This document shows, one piece after another, positions 4,869 through 47,642 of a DNA stretch of 64,000 nucleotides. The DNA comes from Fibrisoma limi BUZ 3 (GTDB lineage Bacteria > Bacteroidota > Bacteroidia > Cytophagales > Spirosomataceae). Under the pieces are notes generated by a model. That model was not told where the DNA came from and did no database searches. It worked only from the letters and a program-made list of their open reading frames with translations. The stretch spans positions 1 to 64,000 of the forward strand of contig NZ_CAIT01000008.1 of NCBI RefSeq assembly GCF_000296815.2, written 5' to 3'. Every line of letters starts with the position of its first letter. The first letter of the stretch is position 1. The position numbers and the translations under genes were made by a program.

Positions 4869-6299
4869 GTGAAAAAGCTCTTTCTTTCCGCACTTTTTGG
4901 GTTGACCCTGGTATCGGGATGGGCACAGACCCGGGTTGTTTTACTGAACGATACGGCTCGGCTGGGCGTATCGCCTACGGCACTGGCGAAGACTTACCCA
5001 CCAGCGCTGGCAACGAGAAGCGGTGAGAAAGGCGTTTTTGAGCGACACGGCAAACGATTTATGGATAGCACCCATGCGTCCATGCAGCGATTTTTCAGCT
5101 TCATGGAGGCTAACAAAAAACGCCTTCCGGTTAAAGGGGTGCTGCTACAGGTTCAGGAGTTTGTCCGGCCCGACGGCAGCTACGACTGGGTATTTTGCCA
5201 GTTCAGGAGCGACACCCTGACGGAAGCCCAAAACACGGCCCTCCTGGCTGTTCTGACCGACTGGTATACGCAACATCCGTTCCCCATTCGAACGACAACC
5301 GGCTTTCAGACGAGTCGTTTCACGCAGATTGGCAACGTACCACAACCCCGCAAGCCCCGACGCGGACCGGGCATCATCGCTACCCTGGAGGCTGCGCGTA
5401 AAACGGACCGCCCCGACACCGTAAGGATGCTGGCTTTTAACCAGCTTGACCTAACCGACATCCCCGACGTTGTTTACCGCTTCCCGAAGCTGGAAGAGCT
5501 GGATCTGTCGAAGAATGGCCTTCGCTACGTACCCGCCGAATTGACCGAGCGCATTCCCACGCTGAAACGACTGAGTTTTCTGTACAACAGCATCCCCGAC
5601 GACAGTGTCTTCTTCCCAAAGAATAATCACCTGCTCGCGCTAAATCTCCAGGGTAATCGGCTCACCCGTATTCCGCAAGCGGTCGGCAACAACCGGCGGT
5701 TGGAAAGCCTGTGGATGGGAAACAACAAACTGCGGGAGGTTAACGCCAAACTGCTTCGTCGCCTGCGCCGGCTCAACGACCTGAACCTCTACAACGCCGG
5801 GCTGGCCCAACTACCCAAAAACTTCGGGGGCCTTCGTCGCCTGAAGGTACTGGACCTCTACTACAACAAGCTGACGACGCTGCCCCGCTCCATGCGCCGG
5901 ATGAAGCGGCTGGAACAGTTGGCCATCGCCCACAATGACTTTACTACCCTACCTGCTACGCTCGGCCGACTGCCAAAACTACAGGTACTATACACGCATC
6001 ATAACCGCATCAGCCAGTTACCAGCATCACTCCAGAAGCTTAAGACCCTGCGCGTGCTTGACATTAGCTACAACTGGTTTACGGTGCCACCCCCGATCCT
6101 CGCATCGTTGCCCTCGCTGGAGGAACTTGACATGAGCAACAACAACCTACAGGAACTCCCCATCACACTAAGCAGCCTTAAGAGCCTCAAAAAAGTGTAT
6201 CTGCGCGCCAACCCCCTGTCGCAGGGCGATACCAAATCTGGCCCCTACGCCCAGCTCATCAAGCAGTTGGAAGCTAATCAGACGGAGGTGTTTTATTGA
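4869..6299 (+). CDS. Secreted leucine-rich repeat protein
   Basis: A 476-residue protein starting at a GTG codon, with a signal peptide (MKKLFLSALFGLTLVSGWAQ). Residues about 20-170 form a non-repeat domain I do not recognise; from about 185 to the C-terminus there are roughly eleven leucine-rich repeats of about 23 residues (L..L.L..N.L..LP). These look like the plant-like/Ras-suppressor LRR type often found in Bacteroidetes. It is predicted to be periplasmic or surface-exposed and to bind another protein; no catalytic motif is visible. The repeats are diverged at DNA level, unlike those of the Roco gene at 44.5 kb, so the two LRR arrays are not recent copies. It has its own upstream terminator and a polypurine/polypyrimidine hairpin downstream. 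Confidence 0.85.
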   Translation: MKKLFLSALFGLTLVSGWAQTRVVLLNDTARLGVSPTALAKTYPPALATRSGEKGVFERHGKRFMDSTHASMQRFFSFMEANKKRLPVKGVLLQVQEFVRPDGSYDWVFCQFRSDTLTEAQNTALLAVLTDWYTQHPFPIRTTTGFQTSRFTQIGNVPQPRKPRRGPGIIATLEAARKTDRPDTVRMLAFNQLDLTDIPDVVYRFPKLEELDLSKNGLRYVPAELTERIPTLKRLSFLYNSIPDDSVFFPKNNHLLALNLQGNRLTRIPQAVGNNRRLESLWMGNNKLREVNAKLLRRLRRLNDLNLYNAGLAQLPKNFGGLRRLKVLDLYYNKLTTLPRSMRRMKRLEQLAIAHNDFTTLPATLGRLPKLQVLYTHHNRISQLPASLQKLKTLRVLDISYNWFTVPPPILASLPSLEELDMSNNNLQELPITLSSLKSLKKVYLRANPLSQGDTKSGPYAQLIKQLEANQTEVFY

Positions 6300-35132: not shown

Positions 35133-35190
35133 AAGGTTGTGATTAGTAAGTTGACCGGAGAATGGTCGTATGAAAAGTACAAAATTGCAC

Positions 35191-35218
35191 GTAGAGACGC
35201 AATATGTTGCGTCTCTAC
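35191..35218. repeat. REP-like palindrome GTAGAGACGCAA
   Basis: GTAGAGACGCAA (35191-35202) pairs perfectly with TTGCGTCTCTAC (35207-35218), with loop TATG. This form is a typical dispersed palindrome in Cytophagales and cyanobacteria, likely mobilised by RAYT-type transposases. Only one copy occurs in this window. Confidence 0.8.
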
Positions 35219-35327
35219 TTAACAACGTAACATCATTAACATCTGCTTCAAAAACTGCGACCACATCGAGGTGGTTGATTCTGGCTTTTTGCTAAATCTC
35301 ACACTCACCGTCCGTCGATTCATTGTG

Positions 35328-36293
35328 TTAGCGTTTAAATCGCTCCTGCATGTGCCATTGAAATCCCTCCTTACTGGGATAATGTACCTCACCAAATGGC
35401 AAACGTAGTGGCTGGCCGTGGAACTGCTTGAGGTTATATGGACTCGCTACATTGTCGGCCAAGGAGGGGGAGACAACCACGCGCATCCGTTCATCGATAC
35501 CGATCATACCCCGGTCAAAGGCGGTGTGAAGCGTCGGGCAAAGCGCAATCCCGTTTGTAACCTTATCGTCGCCGGAAATACTGATGGGTATAATATGACA
35601 GGCTTCTACCAACGATGCCCCATCAACAGCAATGACTTTCATTCCGGAGATTGCACAGGTGAAATCGTAAACCTTCGGCACCAGCTTCTTGAATAAACCG
35701 CCCCGAACGTAGCGGGTTTCTTCATCATCAACGGGTGGTAAAACTGTGCTGTAGATTCCTTCTTTCTCATTCAGCAGGTACGACTCCAACTCCTGGACGT
35801 AGCTCCGACCCACATTTTTTACCTGAAGGTATGCTTGTTTTGTATCACCGAAATAGGTGTTTAATAGCGTTTGCTTTAATTGAAATCGGGCTTCGTTATT
35901 AATCAGTAGGGCGAAAAGGTCGTCAGCGAAGTAGGCGTACTCTACACTATCGCTCAACGTCTGGACGCTGCGGATATACGTAGCTATTGGAACGCCTGAT
36001 CTTCCTTTTAAAAACCAGAAGCCTTCACTCTGCAAATAGTAAAATGGTTGAGTGAAGTCGTCTGTGTGGGTCGTTTTAACCAACAACGCAAAATTCTCCT
36101 TAAACGTAGCAACCAGTTCGGGCGAGATATAGACTTGATTTTCCCTGATTACCTGTTGGTCAATCAGATCAATTATTGTCAGCAGAAAAACTGGTTTGTG
36201 AGGAGCCTTTCCATACTTTGTTCCTCCTTGTTTCAGTTTGCCGAACCGTCTCGTGTATTCGGCTAACGGATGCCTGGCAGAAGCAGCTTGCAT
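35328..36293 (-). CDS. HNH endonuclease domain protein
   Basis: A 321-residue protein. The N-terminal half (about 20-180) starts with YGKAPHKPVFLLTIIDLI, a segment that recurs in a widespread class of HNH restriction-like proteins. The C-terminal HNH domain (about 205-275) has a Cys (FTCAISG), the core EACHIIPIS and NGIALCPTLHTAFDRG, consistent with a metal-dependent nuclease. The class includes modification-dependent (type IV-like) enzymes, some with DNA phosphorothioate-binding domains. No methyltransferase neighbour is present, so an orphan or type IV role is possible. Composition is AT-richer than the adjacent genes by eye. Confidence 0.85.
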   Translation of the reverse strand: MQAASARHPLAEYTRRFGKLKQGGTKYGKAPHKPVFLLTIIDLIDQQVIRENQVYISPELVATFKENFALLVKTTHTDDFTQPFYYLQSEGFWFLKGRSGVPIATYIRSVQTLSDSVEYAYFADDLFALLINNEARFQLKQTLLNTYFGDTKQAYLQVKNVGRSYVQELESYLLNEKEGIYSTVLPPVDDEETRYVRGGLFKKLVPKVYDFTCAISGMKVIAVDGASLVEACHIIPISISGDDKVTNGIALCPTLHTAFDRGMIGIDERMRVVVSPSLADNVASPYNLKQFHGQPLRLPFGEVHYPSKEGFQWHMQERFKR

Positions 36294-36400
36294 AAGGATT
36301 CTGTCTTAACCGTAAAGATAATTCGCCTTTCGCTGCATCGACGGCTTTTTCGTTTTTCTTACTTTTATCAATTCACAACCCACGAATTGATACAACCGCT

Positions 36401-37867
36401 ATGCAGAAACACCTACTCACCCTGGCACTGTTGCTGCCATTAGCCGGCTATGCGCAGTCGGCAAAGAAATCAGCCACCCCTGCTCCGGACAAAGACAAAC
36501 AGGCGGTCATCACCAGCCTGAACAACCGCTTTGCCGAATACGCGGGTATTTCCAAGCAAATCTGGGATTTTGCCGAACTGGGCTATCAGGAAGAAAAAAG
36601 CTCGCTGCTCCTGCAGAAACAATTGACGAAAGAAGGCTTCGACGTGAAAGCGGGCGTAGCCGGCATCCCGACGGCCTTCGTCGCTACCTACGGCTCCGGC
36701 AAGCCCGTGATCGGTATCCTGGCCGAATACGACGCCCTGCCTGGTCTGGCTACCGAAGCTAAACCTGAGTTTACGCCCATTCAGGGACAGAAGGGCGGAC
36801 ACGGCTGCGGCCACAACCTGTTCGGCACGGCCTCGGTAGCCGCCGGGGTGGAAGTGAAGAATTGGCTCAAGGCCGGTCATACGGGCACGATCAAAGTGTA
36901 CGGCTGCCCGGCCGAAGAAGGCGGCTCAGGGAAGGTATATATGGTCCGCGAAGGTCTGTTCAACGACGTGGACGTGGTGCTGCACTGGCATCCGGGCTCG
37001 CAGAATGCCGCCGACGCCGGTACGTCGCTGGCCAACAAGAACGCCAAGTTCCGGTTTCGGGGCATTGCGGCCCACGCGGCTGCTTCACCCGAACGCGGCC
37101 GGTCGGCCCTCGACGGCGTGGAAGCCATGAACTTTATGGTCAACATCATGCGCGAACACATTCCGTCGGATACCCGCATCCACTACGTCATTACCAAAGG
37201 CGGAGAAGCCCCGAACGTAGTGCCGGCCTTCGCGGAGGTGTACTATTACGCCCGTCACAAAGACCGCGATATTCTGCAAAGTGTCTGGAAGCGTATCGAG
37301 AACGCAGCCGAAGGAGCCGCCAAAGGCACTGGTACCAAAGTGGAATGGGAAGTACTGGGGGGCGTGTACAACCTGCTGCCCAATGTAACACTGGCCGAGG
37401 TCATGCACAAGAACCTCCAAACGGTAGGCGGCATCACCTACACCCCCGAAGAAACGGCGTTTGCGCAGAAGATCAGCGAAACCTTCGGCGAAGGGCAGAA
37501 AGTCCCCATTACCAATGCCGCCCTTGTTAAAGATTTCCGCGATGCTTCCGAAAGTGCAACCAGTGGCGGCTCCACGGATGTCGGCGACGTAAGCTGGGCG
37601 GTGCCGACGGTGGGACTTCAGACCGCTACGTGGGTACCGGGTTCATCGGCGCATAGCTGGCAGTCGACGGCCGCCAGCGGCATGACCATTGGCCAAAAAG
37701 GGATGCTGGTGGCTGCTAAAACCCTGGCCCTGACAGCGCTGGATCTGTACAAAACCCCCACCCTCATCGAAAAAGCCCGCGCCGAATGGCAGCAGAAACG
37801 CGGGGCCAACTTTAACTACGAAGCCCTGCTCGGCGACCGAAAACCCGCCCTGGATTATAGAAAGTAA
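36401..37867 (+). CDS. M20 family amidohydrolase (AbgB-like)
   Basis: A 488-residue secreted amidohydrolase (signal peptide QKHLLTLALLLPLAGYAQS). Metal-site motifs HGCGHNLFGTASVAAG and a bulk match to the aminobenzoyl-glutamate utilisation protein B group, with dimerisation domain (about 210-330) containing FRGIAAHAAASPERGRSALD. It should cleave amide bonds (for example p-aminobenzoyl-glutamate or acyl-amino acids) in the periplasm. Complete. The next gene, aspS, lies after a repeat-rich gap. Confidence 0.9.
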   Translation: MQKHLLTLALLLPLAGYAQSAKKSATPAPDKDKQAVITSLNNRFAEYAGISKQIWDFAELGYQEEKSSLLLQKQLTKEGFDVKAGVAGIPTAFVATYGSGKPVIGILAEYDALPGLATEAKPEFTPIQGQKGGHGCGHNLFGTASVAAGVEVKNWLKAGHTGTIKVYGCPAEEGGSGKVYMVREGLFNDVDVVLHWHPGSQNAADAGTSLANKNAKFRFRGIAAHAAASPERGRSALDGVEAMNFMVNIMREHIPSDTRIHYVITKGGEAPNVVPAFAEVYYYARHKDRDILQSVWKRIENAAEGAAKGTGTKVEWEVLGGVYNLLPNVTLAEVMHKNLQTVGGITYTPEETAFAQKISETFGEGQKVPITNAALVKDFRDASESATSGGSTDVGDVSWAVPTVGLQTATWVPGSSAHSWQSTAASGMTIGQKGMLVAAKTLALTALDLYKTPTLIEKARAEWQQKRGANFNYEALLGDRKPALDYRK

Positions 37868-38073
37868 AGAGCGAAAGAGCGAAAGAGCGAAAGAGCGAAT
37901 CAATGAAGGCGCGAATAGATAAGTACTGCGCAGTAGCGACAAACTCCCTACCTTTGCAACCATACTACAGTAACTGAATGATGGAATGATTGACCGAATC
38001 GCCGGTGCGATACTTGAATTAGGATTCTACTAGCCATTCGCTCTTTCACTCATTCGCTCTTTCACTCATTAAA
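37868..38073. repeat. Low-complexity inverted repeat with GAGCGAAA units
   Basis: A tandem (GAGCGAAA)n stretch (37869-37900) is followed about 140 bases later by ATTCGCTCTTTCACTC twice (38036-38070), approximately complementary to it. Both arms use the words CATTCGCT, CTTTCAC and ACTCATT, also found at 7500-7526. Between them is a promoter motif (37949) for aspS. Confidence 0.75.
37949..37956 (+). promoter_or_regulatory. TACCTTTG promoter for aspS
   Basis: TACCTTTGC matches TAnnTTTG about 120 bases upstream of aspS, inside the arms of the low-complexity inverted repeat, so the repeat would be in the leader. Confidence 0.5.
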
Positions 38074-38075
38074 AT

Positions 38076-39866
38076 ATGCTCCGAACACACACCTGCGGGG
38101 AACTCCGCCTGTCCAACGTTGATCAACAAGTTACCCTCGCCGGCTGGGTTCAGACCATCCGCGATAAAGGGGGCGTCCTCTGGATCGACCTGCGCGACCG
38201 GTATGGACTCACCCAGCTTATTCTGGAAGAAGGCGTCACCGCGCCCGAGCTTTTCGACGTAGCCCGGTCGCTGGGCCGCGAGTACGTCGTCAACGCTACG
38301 GGCACCGTCGTCGAACGAAAATCCAAAAACCCCAATATTCCGACCGGCAACATCGAAATACGTGTGTCGGCGCTCAGCGTGCTGAACCCAGCCAAACTGC
38401 CGCCCTTCCTGATCGAAGACGATACTGACGGGGGCGACGACCTGCGGATGAAATACCGCTACCTCGACCTGCGCCGGAACGCCGTACGCCGGAACCTGGA
38501 ACTGCGCCACAAGATGGCCCAGCAGACCCGAATTTACATGGACGGCCAGGGCTTTATCGAAGTCGAAACACCGGTACTGATCAAATCAACGCCGGAAGGC
38601 GCACGGGACTTCGTCGTACCCAGTCGTATGAACCCCGGTGAGTTCTACGCCCTACCTCAGTCCCCCCAGACGTTCAAGCAGTTGCTGATGGTGTCGGGGT
38701 TTGACCGGTATTACCAGATTGTCAAATGCTTCCGCGATGAGGACCTCCGCGCCGATCGCCAGCCTGAGTTTACGCAGATCGACTGCGAAATGTCGTTCAT
38801 CGAGCAGGAAGACATTTTGCAGATGTTCGAAGGGCTGGTACGTCACCTGTTCAAAACCGTGAAAGGTATCGATCTGCCCGAGGTGCTGCGCATGACCTAC
38901 GCTGAAGCCATGAGCCTGTATGGTTCTGATAAACCTGATACGCGGTTCGGCATGAAGTTCGTCGAACTGAAAGGTACGTTCGACACGGTTGATCTGACGT
39001 CGGGTAAAAACTTTGGCGTGTTCGATTCCGCTGAACTGGTTGTGGGTATCAACGTACCGGGGGGAGCCAGCTACACCCGCAAGCAGATCGATGAGCTAAC
39101 CGACTGGGTCAAACGCCCGCAGGTGGGAGCCAAAGGCCTGATTTATGTGCGCTACAATGAGGATGGCACGCTGAAATCGTCGGTCGATAAGTTCTATTCG
39201 GAAGACGATCTGAAGCAGTGGGTAGCCCGCTTCAATGGCGAGGGCGAAACCTGCCAGCCCGGCGATTTGATCCTGGTCATTTCCGGCGAAGCGGCCAAAG
39301 CCCGGAAGCAGTTGAACGAACTGCGGCTCGAAATGGGCAGCCGCCTGGGCCTGCGCAATCCCGACGAATTTAAAGTCCTGTGGGTGCTTGATTTCCCCCT
39401 GCTCGAATACGGCGAGGAGGAACAGCGCTGGTTCGCCATGCACCACCCGTTCACGTCGCCGAAGCCCGAGGACATTCCGCTGCTGGATACCGATCCGGGC
39501 GCGGTACGGGCCAACGCCTACGACATGGTCATCAACGGCACGGAAGTTGGGGGGGGCTCCATCCGGATTTTCCAGCGCGACCTGCAAGCCCGGATGTTCG
39601 ATCTGCTGGGCTTCTCGCCGGAAGAAGCGAAAGCTCAGTTCGGCTTCCTGATGGATGCGTTCGAGTTCGGCGCACCACCCCACGGCGGCATTGCGTTCGG
39701 TTTCGACCGGCTGTGCTCCATCTTCGGCGGGGCCGACTCGATCCGCGATTTCATCGCGTTCCCGAAAAACAACTCCGGCCGCGACGTCATGATCGATTCA
39801 CCGTCGGTTATCAGCCAGGCGCAACTGGATGAACTGAAGATAAAGACGGTAGCCGAAACAAAGTAG
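38076..39866 (+). CDS. aspS: Aspartyl-tRNA synthetase
   Basis: A 596-residue class II aminoacyl-tRNA synthetase that charges tRNA-Asp (possibly also tRNA-Asn). Domain order: OB-fold anticodon binding (about 1-110), class II core with [12 protein letters not shown], motif 2 [18 protein letters not shown], the bacterial GAD insertion (about 290-420), and motif 3 AFGFDRL. The C-terminal [11 protein letters not shown] is typical. Full-length, cytoplasmic and essential. Followed by a clear terminator. Confidence 0.97.
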
Positions 39867-43203: not shown

Positions 43204-44421
43204 ATGGAATCAACGACCTTATTACCTACCGAACAACAGCGCTATCAGAAGCACCTGAACTTACCCGAGATTGGTCCGGAGGGCCAGCTTCGGCTGAAGA
43301 ATGCGCGCGTACTGGTTGTCGGGGCCGGTGGCCTCGGCTGCCCCGTTCTGCTTTACCTGACAGCCGCAGGCGTTGGGACCATTGGCGTCGTTGATCCCGA
43401 TGTCGTCGATATGAGCAATCTGCAGCGGCAGGTTCTGTACACCACCGACGAAGTGGGCAAGCCTAAAGCCAAGATTGCCGTCAGCCACCTGATGCGGCTG
43501 AACCCTGAGCTGCATTTCAACACCTATACACTGGCGCTGGACATCAGCAACGCCCGCAGCATCATTGAAGAATACGACATCGTGGTCGATTGCACCGACA
43601 ATTTTAAGGTCCGGTATCTCGTCAACGATGTCTGCGTTACGTTAGGCAAACCGTTCGTTTACGGAGCCATCCACCGGTTCGAAGGTCAGGTAGCCGTACT
43701 GAATGCACCGATTCCCGCTCCTTCGTCTGACGGTACGTCTGACGCTGTTAAAGCGTTTGGGGATGGGTATTCAAAACCTGCGTCAGACGAGCATAAAGTC
43801 CGCCGGGGGCCAACGTACCGCTGCCTGTTTCCGGAGTATCCGAACGAGATCGAAATTCCAAACTGCAACGACACGGGTGTGCTGGGCGTGCTGCCGGGCG
43901 TGATCGGTACGTTGCAGGCCAATGAAGTCATTAAGCTCATCACGGGCATTGGCCAGCCGCTGAACGAGCACCTGCTGATGATGGACCTGCTCTCGATGCA
44001 GCAGCAGAAAATCAAGGTAAAACGCCGGGCCGACGCCGACGAACTGGCCCGCCAGGGTCTCGCATCGGGCTACCGACCCGCAACTGCCACCTCAACCGGA
44101 CCGCAGAAGATGTCGGCGCGGGAACTGGCCGACCGGCTGGCCCGGGGCGAATCCATCTTCCTGCTCGACGTTCGCGAACGGCCGGAATACGACCTCTGCC
44201 ACCTGGAGCAGGCGGTACTGATTCCGATTGATATGATTCCCAACAACCGCAAGCGCATCCCGACAGACCGCCCGGTGGTGGTGTACTGCCACCACGGTAT
44301 CCGCAGCGCCAACGTTGCTAATTACCTCTACGCGCAGGAGGGCCTGACGAATCTCTACAACCTCGAAGGTGGCATCGACGCCTGGGCGCGGGAAATCGAG
44401 CCTGAAATGGCCGTGTATTGA
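43204..44421 (+). CDS. moeB: MoeB/ThiF-type adenylyltransferase with C-terminal rhodanese
   Basis: A 405-residue protein with an E1-like adenylation domain (about 10-270: VVGAGGLGCPVLLYL, DNFKVRYLVND) and a rhodanese domain (303-398, active-site Cys362 in VVVYCHHGIRSAN). It activates the C-terminus of a sulfur carrier such as MoaD or ThiS and supplies the persulfide. It has an unusual insertion at about residues 168-200, between GQVAVLN and GPTYRCLFPEY, whose DNA contains a palindromic repeat (43736-43789). Relatives have only a few residues there. Two 17-base direct repeats precede it. Confidence 0.9.
   Translation: MESTTLLPTEQQRYQKHLNLPEIGPEGQLRLKNARVLVVGAGGLGCPVLLYLTAAGVGTIGVVDPDVVDMSNLQRQVLYTTDEVGKPKAKIAVSHLMRLNPELHFNTYTLALDISNARSIIEEYDIVVDCTDNFKVRYLVNDVCVTLGKPFVYGAIHRFEGQVAVLNAPIPAPSSDGTSDAVKAFGDGYSKPASDEHKVRRGPTYRCLFPEYPNEIEIPNCNDTGVLGVLPGVIGTLQANEVIKLITGIGQPLNEHLLMMDLLSMQQQKIKVKRRADADELARQGLASGYRPATATSTGPQKMSARELADRLARGESIFLLDVRERPEYDLCHLEQAVLIPIDMIPNNRKRIPTDRPVVVYCHHGIRSANVANYLYAQEGLTNLYNLEGGIDAWAREIEPEMAVY
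43724..43789. repeat. Palindromic repeat inserted in frame in moeB
   Basis: CGTCTGACGC (43736-43745) is perfectly complementary to GCGTCAGACG (43780-43789), with a further direct copy CGTCTGACG at 43724-43732. The whole segment encodes the extra ~30 residues of the MoeB protein. The layout suggests insertion of a REP-like element that kept the frame open. Confidence 0.7.
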
Positions 44422-44467
44422 CCTTTTAAGCGAAAGCAGTTACACAAACCGGTTTACAACGTAGTGG

Positions 44468-44511
44468 CATCGTGGGTGGAGATTTTATATTTGTAAAAAC
44501 CACCCACGATG
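44468..44511 (+). promoter_or_regulatory. Promoter within a 12-bp inverted repeat over the Roco start codon
   Basis: CATCGTGGGTGG (44468-44479) and CCACCCACGATG (44500-44511) form a perfect 12-bp inverted repeat with 20 AT-rich bases between. The spacer contains TATATTTG (44487-44494), a TAnnTTTG promoter, and the right arm ends in the ATG start codon of the Roco gene at 44509. Transcription would begin within the right arm, so this can be an operator for a dimeric repressor as well as a hairpin. Confidence 0.65.
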
Positions 44512-47500
44512 ACGCCACCCGAAGCCCTCAAACGGATTGCTGCTTGCCAAAAGCGCCACGAACCAACACTAGATTTAAGTGGATTAAAGCTGGTAGAAAT
44601 TCCTCCTGAGATAAGTGAATTAGTTTGGCTGACTACATTATCCCTTCGCAATAACCAGATCCGTGAGATCAAAGGTCTTGCCTCGCTCAACCAGTTAACA
44701 GAATTATCCCTTCGCAATAACCGGATCAGTGAGATCAAAGGCCTGGAGTCGCTTACTCAGTTAACTAAACTGTCCCTTTCCGACAACCGGATCAGTGAGA
44801 TCAAAGGCCTGGAGTCGCTCAACCAGTTAACAGAATTATACCTTTTAGACAACCAGATCAGTGAGATCAAAGGCCTTGAGCCGCTTACTCAGTTAACTAC
44901 ATTATACCTTTCCGACAACCAGATCAGTGAGATCAAAGGCCTTGAGCCGCTTACTCAGTTAACTACATTAAACCTTTCCGACAACCAGATCAGTGAGATC
45001 AAAGGCCTGGAGCCGCTTACTCAGTTAACTACATTAAACCTTTCCTACAACCAGATCCGTGAGATCAAAGGCCTGGAGTCGCTTACTCAGTTAACTACAT
45101 TATACCTTTCCTACAACCAGATCAGTGAGATCAAAGGCCTGGAGCCGCTTACGCAGTTAACTACATTATACCTTTCCTACAACCAGATCAGTGAGATCAA
45201 AGGCCTGGAGTCGCTTACGCAGTTAACTACATTATACCTTTCCGACAACCAGATCCGTGAGATCAAAGGCCTGGAGTCGCTTACTCAGTTAACTACATTA
45301 TACCTTTCCGACAACCAGATCCGTGAGATCAAAGGCTTGACTATTGCCCAGTTGGAGCGAATGAAAAAACTGGATTTAACAAATAATCCAATAAAAGGTG
45401 TTCAATTAAGTGACTTCGCCGATGTTAAGGGCATCATTGGTTATCTGAAAAGTCAGCAGGAAGACCCGGTGCGGTTAGTCAGCAATCTGCGTCTGAAAGT
45501 TAATATCCTGGGGGCCGGCCGAATTGGCAAAACGCAGTTGTTTCGCTTCTTTAAAAAAGAGCCGTTTACCGACAATGAGCCAGAAACACACGGTACTAAC
45601 GCATATGATTACGTCCTGCCACATACGGATTACCGAGCTAAACTGTGGGATTTTGGTGGGCAATCCTATCACCACGGCTTCCATTACCTGTTTTTGCGCA
45701 AGTCTGATTTTTATGTAGTGCTGTGGCGTAATAACAGGCAGCGCGACCCGGACTATGGCTACTGGTTAGGGACGGTACGCGCCTTCGCGCCCGATCCTGC
45801 ACAAGCCCCTTTGCTATTAGTGCAAAATTGCTGGACAAGCTGGAGTGAAGATTATCAACAAGCGCAAAATGACAGCAATCTGCCGGATGTAGTCGCTTAC
45901 CCCGACAGTGAACGCTTACGATTATATCAGCTTGGCTTAACTGATGTATTCGCCATCGACGTCCGTCAACTTTCCGGCTCCGGTTTGCGGGAGCGATATT
46001 TTTTAGACGTCCTGCACAGTCGGATGCAGCATCATGCGGATTCGTTCGATCGTATTTCTTTGAAGTGGGTACGTGTAGCAGAACGATTGGACGAATCTCC
46101 CCTCGAAGATTTTTACCTGAAGAAGGGTGCATTTAAAAAACGCTACGCCGACGATTTCGATGAAACAGCGTTTGCCGGTTTGCTCAATTACCTGGAGTTC
46201 TCGGGCAACATTCTGTATTTCAGGGAAAGGCCGCTACTCGACCAGTACGTATTCGCCAACCCGCCCCAACTTTCAGACTGGCTTTTCAGCACAATCCTCG
46301 ATGCGGAGTTTAAAGACAAAAACGAAGGCAGGATTAGTCGACAGCTTTTAGCCAAGAAACACGGTAAGGAGAAATCGGACCTGTTTTTTGCCCTGATGGA
46401 CGAGTTTGGGCTAATTTTCAAACAACCCCACCCCGACAGCCCAACAGCCACCACTTCCGACGTTTACATCATTCCGCAGTTTCTGCCAGAATACAAGCAC
46501 AGCTTCAAGCAGGTGCTGCTTGAACTACTACCATTTACGTTCAGCCTGAAGTTTCCTGACTTCATTCACGAAGGCACCATCTTTCGGTTTATTGCGGCTT
46601 ATGGACGGTATGCCAAAGACAACACTGCTTACTGGAAATATGGCCTGCTGTTTAGCTATGAAACCAATCGCCATCGTACAAACAAAACACCGGAGCAAAA
46701 ACACGAAGACACGCTGCAGGTACTGGTGTACTACCTGTACGAAAACCGGCAATTGATGGTGCATATTGAAGACCGTAAGGGGCGTAGCGAAGCAGCCCGC
46801 GAGATCTTTGACTATTTTGTCTTTGATCGTCATTCATTACCATCAACCGAAACACCGGTAGAAAAACCTGGGGCAGGCCGAAAAAAGAAGGAGAACCTGA
46901 CCGAACGAGAAGACATAGCGCTGCGAACTAGTAACCCGTCGCGCGACCTGAAAGATCTCAAAAGCGCAGCCTATCTCTCTACAAACCGGCCTTATTTCAT
47001 GGATGTTGCGGAGACAATGCAAAACGTGAAAGATCAGAATTATTTTGGCACTTGTGTAACTACCAGAAAACGCATCAAACTAGATTTCATGGCCATCAAC
47101 CTCCTTTCTAACGACGATAAACGGAAACTCAGGATTTTCTTTTCATACTCACATAAAGATGAAGCTTACCGCAAGGAGTTTGACGTACACATGGCGATGC
47201 TGAAGCGATCGGGCCGAATCGAAGCCTGGCATGACCGCGAGATCAGGGCCGGTGAAGAGTGGGACGACCGTATTAAGGAGCAGCTTGAAATGGCCGACAT
47301 TGCCCTCCTGATGATTAGTGCCGATTTCCTGAACTCAAACTACATCTGGGAACAGGAGTTAGGCATTCTGCGCCGACGGCTGGAGGCTAAAGACGGCGTC
47401 GTTGTGATTCCGATCTTCACCCGCCCTTGTGATACGCGAGACTTTGATATGATGCGTTTTCAGGGTGCACAGCGCGACCAACAAAGCAAGCTGCCCTGGA

Positions 47501-47580
47501 TTTCATCCAGCCCTGACCGCGATCAGATATACATGGACATCGTCGGCGAAATCAGAAAAACAATTGATTCGATTAGGTAA
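44509..47580 (+). CDS. LRR-Roc-COR-TIR (Roco) protein
   Basis: A 1023-residue multidomain protein with no signal peptide. Residues 41-282 are eleven 22-residue LRRs (unit like LTTLYLSDNQISEIKGLEPL). A Roc GTPase domain (about 325-510) has P-loop GAGRIGKT (335-342) and WDFGGQ (370-375); the usual NKxD is replaced by QNCWTS (439-444). A COR region (about 515-770) follows, then a charged linker (about 785-865). The C-terminal TIR domain (about 873-1005) starts RIFFSYSHKDEAYRKEF and keeps the pattern NSNYIWEQEL, with Glu950 where TIR NADases have their catalytic Glu. It is a relative of LRRK2 without a kinase. It lies alone between moeB and panD, with an AT-richer look than its neighbours, suggesting transfer. 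A defence role is inferred from the TIR, not shown. Confidence 0.9.
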   Translation: MTPPEALKRIAACQKRHEPTLDLSGLKLVEIPPEISELVWLTTLSLRNNQIREIKGLASLNQLTELSLRNNRISEIKGLESLTQLTKLSLSDNRISEIKGLESLNQLTELYLLDNQISEIKGLEPLTQLTTLYLSDNQISEIKGLEPLTQLTTLNLSDNQISEIKGLEPLTQLTTLNLSYNQIREIKGLESLTQLTTLYLSYNQISEIKGLEPLTQLTTLYLSYNQISEIKGLESLTQLTTLYLSDNQIREIKGLESLTQLTTLYLSDNQIREIKGLTIAQLERMKKLDLTNNPIKGVQLSDFADVKGIIGYLKSQQEDPVRLVSNLRLKVNILGAGRIGKTQLFRFFKKEPFTDNEPETHGTNAYDYVLPHTDYRAKLWDFGGQSYHHGFHYLFLRKSDFYVVLWRNNRQRDPDYGYWLGTVRAFAPDPAQAPLLLVQNCWTSWSEDYQQAQNDSNLPDVVAYPDSERLRLYQLGLTDVFAIDVRQLSGSGLRERYFLDVLHSRMQHHADSFDRISLKWVRVAERLDESPLEDFYLKKGAFKKRYADDFDETAFAGLLNYLEFSGNILYFRERPLLDQYVFANPPQLSDWLFSTILDAEFKDKNEGRISRQLLAKKHGKEKSDLFFALMDEFGLIFKQPHPDSPTATTSDVYIIPQFLPEYKHSFKQVLLELLPFTFSLKFPDFIHEGTIFRFIAAYGRYAKDNTAYWKYGLLFSYETNRHRTNKTPEQKHEDTLQVLVYYLYENRQLMVHIEDRKGRSEAAREIFDYFVFDRHSLPSTETPVEKPGAGRKKKENLTEREDIALRTSNPSRDLKDLKSAAYLSTNRPYFMDVAETMQNVKDQNYFGTCVTTRKRIKLDFMAINLLSNDDKRKLRIFFSYSHKDEAYRKEFDVHMAMLKRSGRIEAWHDREIRAGEEWDDRIKEQLEMADIALLMISADFLNSNYIWEQELGILRRRLEAKDGVVVIPIFTRPCDTRDFDMMRFQGAQRDQQSKLPWISSSPDRDQIYMDIVGEIRKTIDSIR
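44629..45354 (+). repeat. 66-bp tandem repeat array encoding the LRRs
   Basis: Eleven 66-base units, each one 22-residue LRR. The central units are almost identical in DNA (repeated text such as CAGATCAGTGAGATCAAAGG and CTTACTCAGTTAACTACATT). Identity at synonymous positions implies recent tandem duplication or strong homogenisation. The array is an in-frame minisatellite and is likely to vary in copy number. It resembles a CRISPR array only superficially. Confidence 0.92.
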
Positions 47581-47642
47581 GAAGGAGAGGGTCAGTTAAC
47601 CGCAGGAACCAAGCCTGCCGACCGGCTGTTTTGGAAGTGCCG

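What the first reader, a model, noticed from the sequence alone, without database searches (positions are those of the whole stretch)
44509..47580. Roco protein with a TIR effector (LRR-Roc-COR-TIR)
One 1023-residue protein carries eleven LRRs, a Roc GTPase domain (GAGRIGKT, WDFGGQ), COR and a C-terminal TIR domain with a conserved Glu950 pattern. In LRRK2-like proteins the C-terminus is a kinase; here it is TIR, which in bacteria often degrades NAD+ after phage sensing. This layout suggests an LRR-GTPase-gated NADase. The gene looks AT-richer than its neighbours, as expected of an acquired defence gene. No phage test is available from sequence.
Basis: partly seen in the sequence, partly recalled or inferred. 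Interest (0 to 1): 0.82.

Follow-up and report, generated by a model that had tools for sequence, protein, structure and literature searches.

The report
Bacterial Roco sensor with TIR effector
This bacterial gene makes an LRRK2-like switch protein whose repeat-built sensor arm has been rebuilt from near-identical copies and whose tail is a TIR domain that probably destroys NAD when triggered; proteins of this layout were already predicted to be immune receptors, so the layout is known, while the rebuilt sensor repeats are its freshest aspect.

Summary
Window 44509-47580(+) is an intact 1023-aa ORF with eleven 22-aa LRR units, Roc, COR-A (COR-B below cut-off) and a C-terminal TIR. Glu950 is invariant in 26 of 26 aligned C-terminal TIRs of Roco proteins. 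The gene is a clean single-gene difference: the sister species has 39 bp at the site. Its nearest relative found, in Larkinella humicola, lies at an unrelated locus; pN 0.187, pS 0.860 over Roc-COR-TIR. The architecture is not new: PMC8195603 (section read) predicts LRR-Roc-COR proteins with TIR and other effectors as counter-invader systems. I add: occasional effector exchange on a Roc-COR tree (C-termini of 61: 27 TIR, 4 CHAT, 3 SEFIR, 2 SIR2_2, 25 unnamed), and LRR arrays homogenised at DNA level (20 of 20 units nearest their own array; 12 of 59 genes with high-purity arrays, scattered on the tree). Selection on the LRR concave face is only suggestive. Most likely a self-contained abortive-infection receptor; NADase activity and phage sensing are inferred.

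The parts
44509..47580 (+). LRR-Roc-COR-TIR protein, 1023 aa
44614..45339 (+). eleven 22-aa LRR units (residues 36-277); 66-bp tandem array called at 44632-45336
45496..45828 (+). Roc GTPase domain (residues 330-440); P-loop GAGRIGKT 45511-45534, WDFGGQ 45646-45663; G4 motif reads QNCW
46063..46485 (+). COR-A domain (residues 519-659)
46540..46719 (+). COR-B-like region (residues 678-737), below Pfam cut-off
47134..47454 (+). TIR_2 domain (residues 876-982)
47356..47358 (+). codon of Glu950, invariant in 26 of 26 aligned TIRs
44420..47604 (.). segment absent in the sister species, where 39 bp lie between the matching flanks
44468..44511 (.). perfect 12-bp inverted repeat (20-bp loop holding TATATTTG) that overlaps the start codon; role unknown

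Best explanation
A single-protein, NLR-like abortive-infection receptor. Inferred mechanism: the LRR arm binds an invader protein or an infection-induced host change; this releases an LRR/Roc-COR restraint, and a GTP-driven Roc-COR conformational cycle (reported for CtRoco; abstract passage of PMC11052575 seen) rearranges the protein; the C-terminal TIR domains come together, and Glu950-dependent cleavage of NAD+ starves or arrests the infected cell. The sensor changes by tandem-repeat recombination within the LRR array, and the effector now and then by domain exchange on the Roc-COR core. Shown here by sequence: the domains, the invariant Glu, purifying selection on Roc-COR-TIR, presence/absence as a single gene, homogenised arrays, effector exchange. 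Inferred: ligand, GTP gating, NADase activity, phage defence.
For: Roc, COR-A and TIR_2 above curated cut-offs. E950 invariant in 26 of 26 TIRs while only 4 columns reach 90%. Profile match to the CRISPR-associated TIR Cat1 (1.2e-9) and, weaker, to BtTir, plant TIRs and AbTIR. Roc-COR-TIR pN 0.187 against pS 0.860 (uncorrected) between the two nearest genes, so the protein is maintained. Named C-termini of its kin are effector types: 27 TIR, 4 CHAT, 3 SEFIR, 2 SIR2_2 of 61. Patchy: COR-A in 43 of 222 family genomes; not found in the sister species, which has an empty site. LRR arrays homogenised separately: 20 of 20 units nearest their own array. Published prediction of the same role.
Against: No experiment. 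No defence gene next to it. The same TIR profile also matches Toll-type receptor TIRs (4w8h 1.6e-5, second; TLR15/TLR2 construct 4.4e-5), so fold kinship alone does not show an enzyme. The G4 motif is degenerate, so GTP specificity is in doubt. AF2 models of the TIR alone (pLDDT 52.6) and of everything beyond the LRR are poor. Concave-face enrichment of replacements is weak (172 of 1287 position subsets as high for this gene). The effector mostly stays with its core: the TIR label needs 8 changes on the tree against 19.9 when shuffled, so exchange is occasional, not free.
Confidence: 0.6

Rival explanations
1. The TIR is a signal-maker: on activation it produces a cyclic ADP-ribose isomer that switches on a separate effector, as ThsB does in Thoeris (recalled), rather than depleting NAD+ itself.
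For: The only PADLOC match is the ThsB TIR model, 5.6e-37; Pfam ThsB_TIR is above its cut-off in one relative (L030) and below it in two (L034, L039) of the nine scanned.
Against: No ThsA-like gene beside it: the neighbours are a ThiF-rhodanese protein and panD. Relatives carry SIR2_2 or CHAT in the same polypeptide position, which suits a self-contained effector. A ThsA elsewhere in the genome was not searched for.
Confidence: 0.2
2. A receptor for something other than phage: rival bacteria, plasmids, predators or internal stress, ending in programmed cell death or dormancy.
For: No ligand is known; PMC8195603 uses the wider term counter-invader; eukaryotic Roco proteins have many roles (passages of PMC6337361).
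Against: The effector set (TIR, SIR2_2, CHAT) overlaps that of proven phage-defence systems (recalled), and repeated effector exchange suits an arms race.
Confidence: 0.15
3. A recently acquired passenger without function in this host, kept by chance.
For: Single-gene segment missing from the sister species; low GC.
Against: Intact 1023-aa frame, pN/pS about 0.22 over Roc-COR-TIR against the nearest relative, active-site Glu kept.
Confidence: 0.05

Closest known systems
Prokaryotic AP-GTPase (Roc)-COR counter-invader proteins, eLife 2021 (PMC8195603; section 15 read)
   Same: LRR-Roc-COR core with a variable C-terminal effector, TIR among at least 24; several paralogues per genome; rapidly evolving LRRs
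   Different: No difference in kind. Added here: an empty site, an E950 conservation count, effector changes on a Roc-COR tree, and array homogenisation in DNA
CtRoco of Chlorobaculum tepidum (LRR-Roc-COR; PDB 6hlu, 8r4b, identity of these entries recalled)
   Same: LRR-Roc-COR order; these entries are among the best solved relatives of the Roc-COR part
   Different: PMC11052575 (passages) says bacterial Rocos consist only of LRR-Roc-COR; here a TIR is fused and the G4 motif is degenerate
Thoeris ThsB
   Same: Closest PADLOC TIR model
   Different: ThsB works with ThsA (recalled); here the TIR is fused to an LRR-GTPase and no ThsA lies next to it
Fungal NLRs with highly similar tandem repeats (PMC4986451, PMC12222747; passages)
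   Same: Homogenised repeat sensor, copy-number change, concerted evolution, effector exchange
   Different: WD40/ANK/TPR repeats on fungal NLRs; LRRs on Roc-COR in bacteria here; positive selection reported there, only suggestive here
Brown-algal LRR-ROCO candidate receptors (PMC11378527; passages)
   Same: LRR-Roc-COR with shuffled LRR units proposed to give new specificities
   Different: Exon shuffling and splicing there; intragenic 66-bp tandem repeats and a TIR effector here

Membership tests
Roco (Roc-COR) proteins | Roc GTPase domain | tested here: met
   Pfam Roc 52.5 bits, cut-off 27; P-loop and DFGGQ present, G4 atypical
Roco (Roc-COR) proteins | COR domain directly after Roc | tested here: met
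   COR-A 43.4 bits, cut-off 35.3; COR-B only 22, cut-off 27
Roco (Roc-COR) proteins | GTP binding and a dimer-monomer cycle | not testable with these tools
   needs biochemistry
TIR NADases | TIR domain | tested here: met
   TIR_2 45.5 bits, cut-off 28; ThsB model 5.6e-37
TIR NADases | Catalytic-type Glu after the S-x-[YF]-[IC] stretch (position of the catalytic Glu recalled) | tested here: met
   E950, 26 of 26; aligned with the E of EL in Cat1 and BtTir
TIR NADases | Fold superposable on solved TIR NADases | tested here: inconclusive
   Best hits are TIRs (Foldseek 8.6e-5, RUN1; VIA Z 11.9, RPS4/RRS1 entry 4c6t_C, rmsd 3.1, 139 aligned) but the model has pLDDT 52.6 and unrelated folds reach Z about 9
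TIR NADases | NAD+ cleavage | not testable with these tools
   needs an assay
AP-GTPase counter-invader systems (PMC8195603) | N-terminal LRRs, Roc-COR, C-terminal exchangeable effector | tested here: met
AP-GTPase counter-invader systems (PMC8195603) | several paralogues can occur in one genome | tested here: met
   two LRR-Roc-COR-TIR genes in this genome (two COR-A places)
Thoeris | ThsA gene next to ThsB | tested here: not met
   neighbours are ThiF-rhodanese and panD
Anti-phage defence system | protects against phage | not testable with these tools

The most novel reading that the evidence does not exclude
Bacterial LRR-Roc-COR receptors diversify their sensor by ongoing recombination of near-identical 66-bp LRR units, with replacements favoured on the concave ligand face and effectors exchanged on the same core: a bacterial counterpart of the repeat-shuffling NLRs of fungi and the LRR-ROCO genes of brown algae, able to change specificity within a species.
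Probability: 0.4. Interest if true: 0.7.

Novelty: new member of a known kind. Interest (0 to 1): 0.48.

Why it matters
In the paper listings seen I met no experiment on a bacterial TIR-Roco protein (searches list 25 of 83, 20 of 37, 25 of 1,068 and 15 of 2,036 papers; searches list all 12, 2 and 14), and PMC6337361 (passages) says very little is known of Roco functions in bacteria and archaea. This gene is a compact, intact case with a clear residue to mutate, a sister species without it for comparison, and a repeat array whose turnover can be measured. If confirmed it would tie the LRRK2 family to bacterial immunity and give a tractable model of a GTPase-gated TIR and of sensor change by repeat recombination.

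Tried and rejected
Thoeris membership: rejected, no ThsA next door. Phage or viral relatives: no match among 50,697 phage records at E 1e-5; in viral contigs 150 stretches matched a TIR pattern, none confirmed by tblastn. Defence island: rejected for the immediate surroundings only; 10 window proteins, the Roco included, were scanned with Pfam and 2 with PADLOC. Positive selection on the concave face: not established; pN 0.269 against 0.175 at other free positions in this gene, 172 of 1287 position subsets as high (72 of 1287 for units 3-11); in the L. humicola array 128 of 1287, and 19 of 1287 for units 2-9. The narrower unit sets were my choice after seeing the data. Degenerate G4 as a mark of this clade: not claimed, since by a crude pattern 35 of 61 Roco genes lack an NKxD-like motif. 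Start-codon inverted repeat: the window holds 11 perfect inverted repeats of this size class and the L. humicola gene lacks it, so I give it no role. Structure models: too poor for placing Glu950 in a pocket; VIA-align also lists receiver domains, dehydroquinases and GTPases at Z 8-9.

Rows dropped: of 62 COR-A places I left out three (a contig-edge piece, G125:C379, and two halves of a broken gene, G161:C14) and added two Roco genes found by the first search (L035, L038), giving 61. One row (L111, Roc cut by the contig end) was left out of the tree (quick search, SH-aLRT support only). In the array census 2 of 61 (L111, L125) had too little upstream sequence and were not counted. The TIR profile was built from 12 of the sequences later counted with it; L037, a TIR by Pfam only, is not among the 26 aligned. 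At locus ends one search took open frames from their first residue.

Full report
What is there. Window 44509-47580 (+) encodes 1023 residues without interruption. Pfam places LRRs, Roc (330-440), COR-A (519-659), a sub-threshold COR-B (678-737) and TIR_2 (876-982). PADLOC's ThsB TIR model matches residues 876-1021 at 5.6e-37. The Roc-COR part finds solved prokaryotic Roco proteins first: 4wnr 4.1e-16, then 3dpu, 6hlu and 8r4b (that these are the M. barkeri and C. tepidum proteins is recalled). A profile of eight TIRs of this group finds Cat1, the CRISPR-associated TIR, first (1.2e-9), then Toll-receptor-related 2 (1.6e-5), BtTir (3.1e-5), plant TIRs and a Toll-like receptor construct, and AbTIR (9.1e-4).

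Active site. Glu950 is the second E of WEQEL. In an alignment of 26 C-terminal TIRs from Roco proteins of one bacterial family, Glu is present in 26 of 26, and only Y880, D909, W918 and E950 reach 90%. The profile alignments to Cat1 and BtTir place it on the E of their EL motif, with a one-residue gap before it. Predicted structures add little: the TIR alone reaches pLDDT 52.6; its best matches are TIRs (RPS4/RRS1 entry 4c6t_C, Z 11.9, rmsd 3.1 over 139 residues), but unrelated alpha/beta folds follow at Z about 9. In the full-length model only the LRR arm is confident.

GTPase motifs. P-loop and DFGGQ are intact. The fourth motif, usually NKxD (recalled), reads QNCW here and in L. humicola and QNVW in two further relatives, while the second Roco gene of this genome has LNKI. 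By a crude pattern scan 26 of 61 Roco genes have an NKxD-like motif, against 60 with a P-loop and 59 with a G3 motif. Base specificity is therefore an open question, here and in much of the family.

Acquisition. GC is 47.2% against 55.0% elsewhere, second lowest of 34 ORFs compared. In the one other genome of the genus that is held, the flanks match at 85-87% and 39 bp stand in place of window 44420-47604. The gene sits between a ThiF-rhodanese gene and panD. No Roco gene was found in that sister genome with the full protein at E 1e-20 or with COR-A at 0.001. The nearest relative, in Larkinella humicola, is 69% identical over the aligned protein and lies elsewhere: that genome's matches to the window flanks are on other contigs. 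Between the two, residues beyond 325 show pN 0.187 and pS 0.860, uncorrected: the protein is under constraint. Gain here and loss in the sister cannot be told apart from two genomes, but low GC and the unlinked relative favour gain.

Family. With the Roc-COR-TIR query 12 of 222 family genomes match at 1e-20, some by the TIR alone; COR-A is in 43 of 222. I recovered 61 Roco genes. Their C-termini: TIR in 27 (26 by my profile, one more by Pfam), CHAT in 4, SEFIR in 3 (two of which also pass the TIR_2 cut-off), SIR2_2 in 2, none named in 25. On a quick Roc-COR tree of 60 of these the TIR label needs at least 8 changes, at least 5 of them forced by strongly supported branches; the shuffled mean is 19.9 with 0 of 500 as low, so the effector is mostly inherited with its core and exchanged now and then. 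The window protein sits in a five-member TIR clade (support 99); the genome's second TIR-Roco (C9, 925 aa) is in a distant clade. Among 53 plasmid records matched, COR-type genes appear on plasmids of Nostoc, Calothrix, Haliscomenobacter, Acaryochloris and Spirosoma linguale, while most of the 30 rows listed match by the TIR alone; none of 50,697 phage records matched.

The LRR array. Eleven 22-aa units are encoded by a 66-bp tandem array, 91% matches; L. humicola has nine. Unit DNA is 84% and 85% identical within each array but 64% between them, and 20 of 20 units have their nearest neighbour in their own array. The gene beyond residue 325 is 67% identical in DNA. So each array has been re-expanded or homogenised since the two genes parted. 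An array with a 57-78 bp period is detected in 29 of 61 Roco genes, 2 of the 61 being untestable. High-purity arrays (84% matches or more, four copies or more; my cut) are in 12 of 59 counted and scattered on the tree (10 changes; shuffled mean 11.1, as low in 43 of 200), from which I infer that homogenisation recurs and fades. Replacements between units are commoner at concave-face positions (pN/pS 1.28 against 0.39 for all other positions), but against other non-structural positions the contrast is weak (172 of 1287 subsets as high; 19 of 1287 in the most favourable L. humicola subset). Which positions are concave is recalled from LRR structures. Assembly collapse of the array cannot be excluded.

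Compared with the literature. PMC8195603 (section 15 read) describes prokaryotic LRR-AP-GTPase-COR proteins with at least 24 C-terminal domains including TIR, 11 paralogues in Haliscomenobacter hydrossis, and rapidly evolving LRRs. The architecture and the predicted role are therefore already in print; an older review (PMC6337361, passages) and PMC11052575 (passages) still describe prokaryotic Rocos as LRR-Roc-COR only. The listings, several of them capped, showed no experiment on a bacterial TIR-Roco protein; most subscription papers are not held. Near-identical repeat sensors with concerted evolution are known from fungal NLRs (PMC4986451, passages); [quoted passage not shown] Brown-algal LRR-ROCO genes shuffle LRR exons (PMC11378527, passages). 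The two searches for homogenised LRR arrays (12 of 237 and 12 of 61 papers listed) showed none in bacterial Roco genes; that is a limited search.

Verdict. Observation confirmed; interpretation reasonable and already predicted for the kind. The member is well preserved, was probably acquired as a single gene, and its sensor array has turned over. Function remains inferred.

Noticed in passing
window 35328-36293 (-): HNH endonuclease gene (Pfam HNH_2; PADLOC HNH 3.8e-16), lowest GC of 34 ORFs compared (46.9%). The sister species has no matching sequence for window 35180-36359 and about 3.3 kb of other DNA there: a second variable site about 8 kb from the Roco gene.
   Followed up: partly
window 44468-44511: Perfect 12-bp inverted repeat with TATATTTG in its 20-bp loop, overlapping the Roco start codon; with a spacing of 15-25 it occurs once in the genome, and not upstream of the L. 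humicola gene.
   Followed up: partly
L039 7829-10606 (own genome, C9): Second LRR-Roc-COR-TIR gene of this genome, with strong COR-A and COR-B matches, a TIR 36% identical to the window's, and its own 69-bp repeat array.
   Followed up: partly
L035 9085-12312 and L038 7762-10875: Roco proteins with a TIR at both ends (TIR-LRR-Roc-COR-TIR); in L035 a further 152-aa TIR gene lies just upstream.
   Followed up: no
L036 5741-8569 (-): TIR fused to an Hsp70-like protein, 942 aa.
   Followed up: no
L041 9214-9981: EAD11-TIR protein, 255 aa, an effector-associated-domain fusion.
   Followed up: no
window 37865-37915 and 38035-38076: Short repeats (units AAAGAGCG and CATTCGCTCTTTCACT) that account for 38 of 42 match rows of this region in the sister genome: a small dispersed repeat family.
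   Followed up: no
L124 3053-6832 (-): Roco gene with a SEFIR/TIR-like C-terminus and a 22-copy, 94%-match 66-bp LRR array, the highest-scoring array of the census.
   Followed up: no
window 4869-6299 (+): 476-aa LRR protein with no other Pfam domain, with weak similarity to the Roco LRRs (1.3e-10).
   Followed up: no
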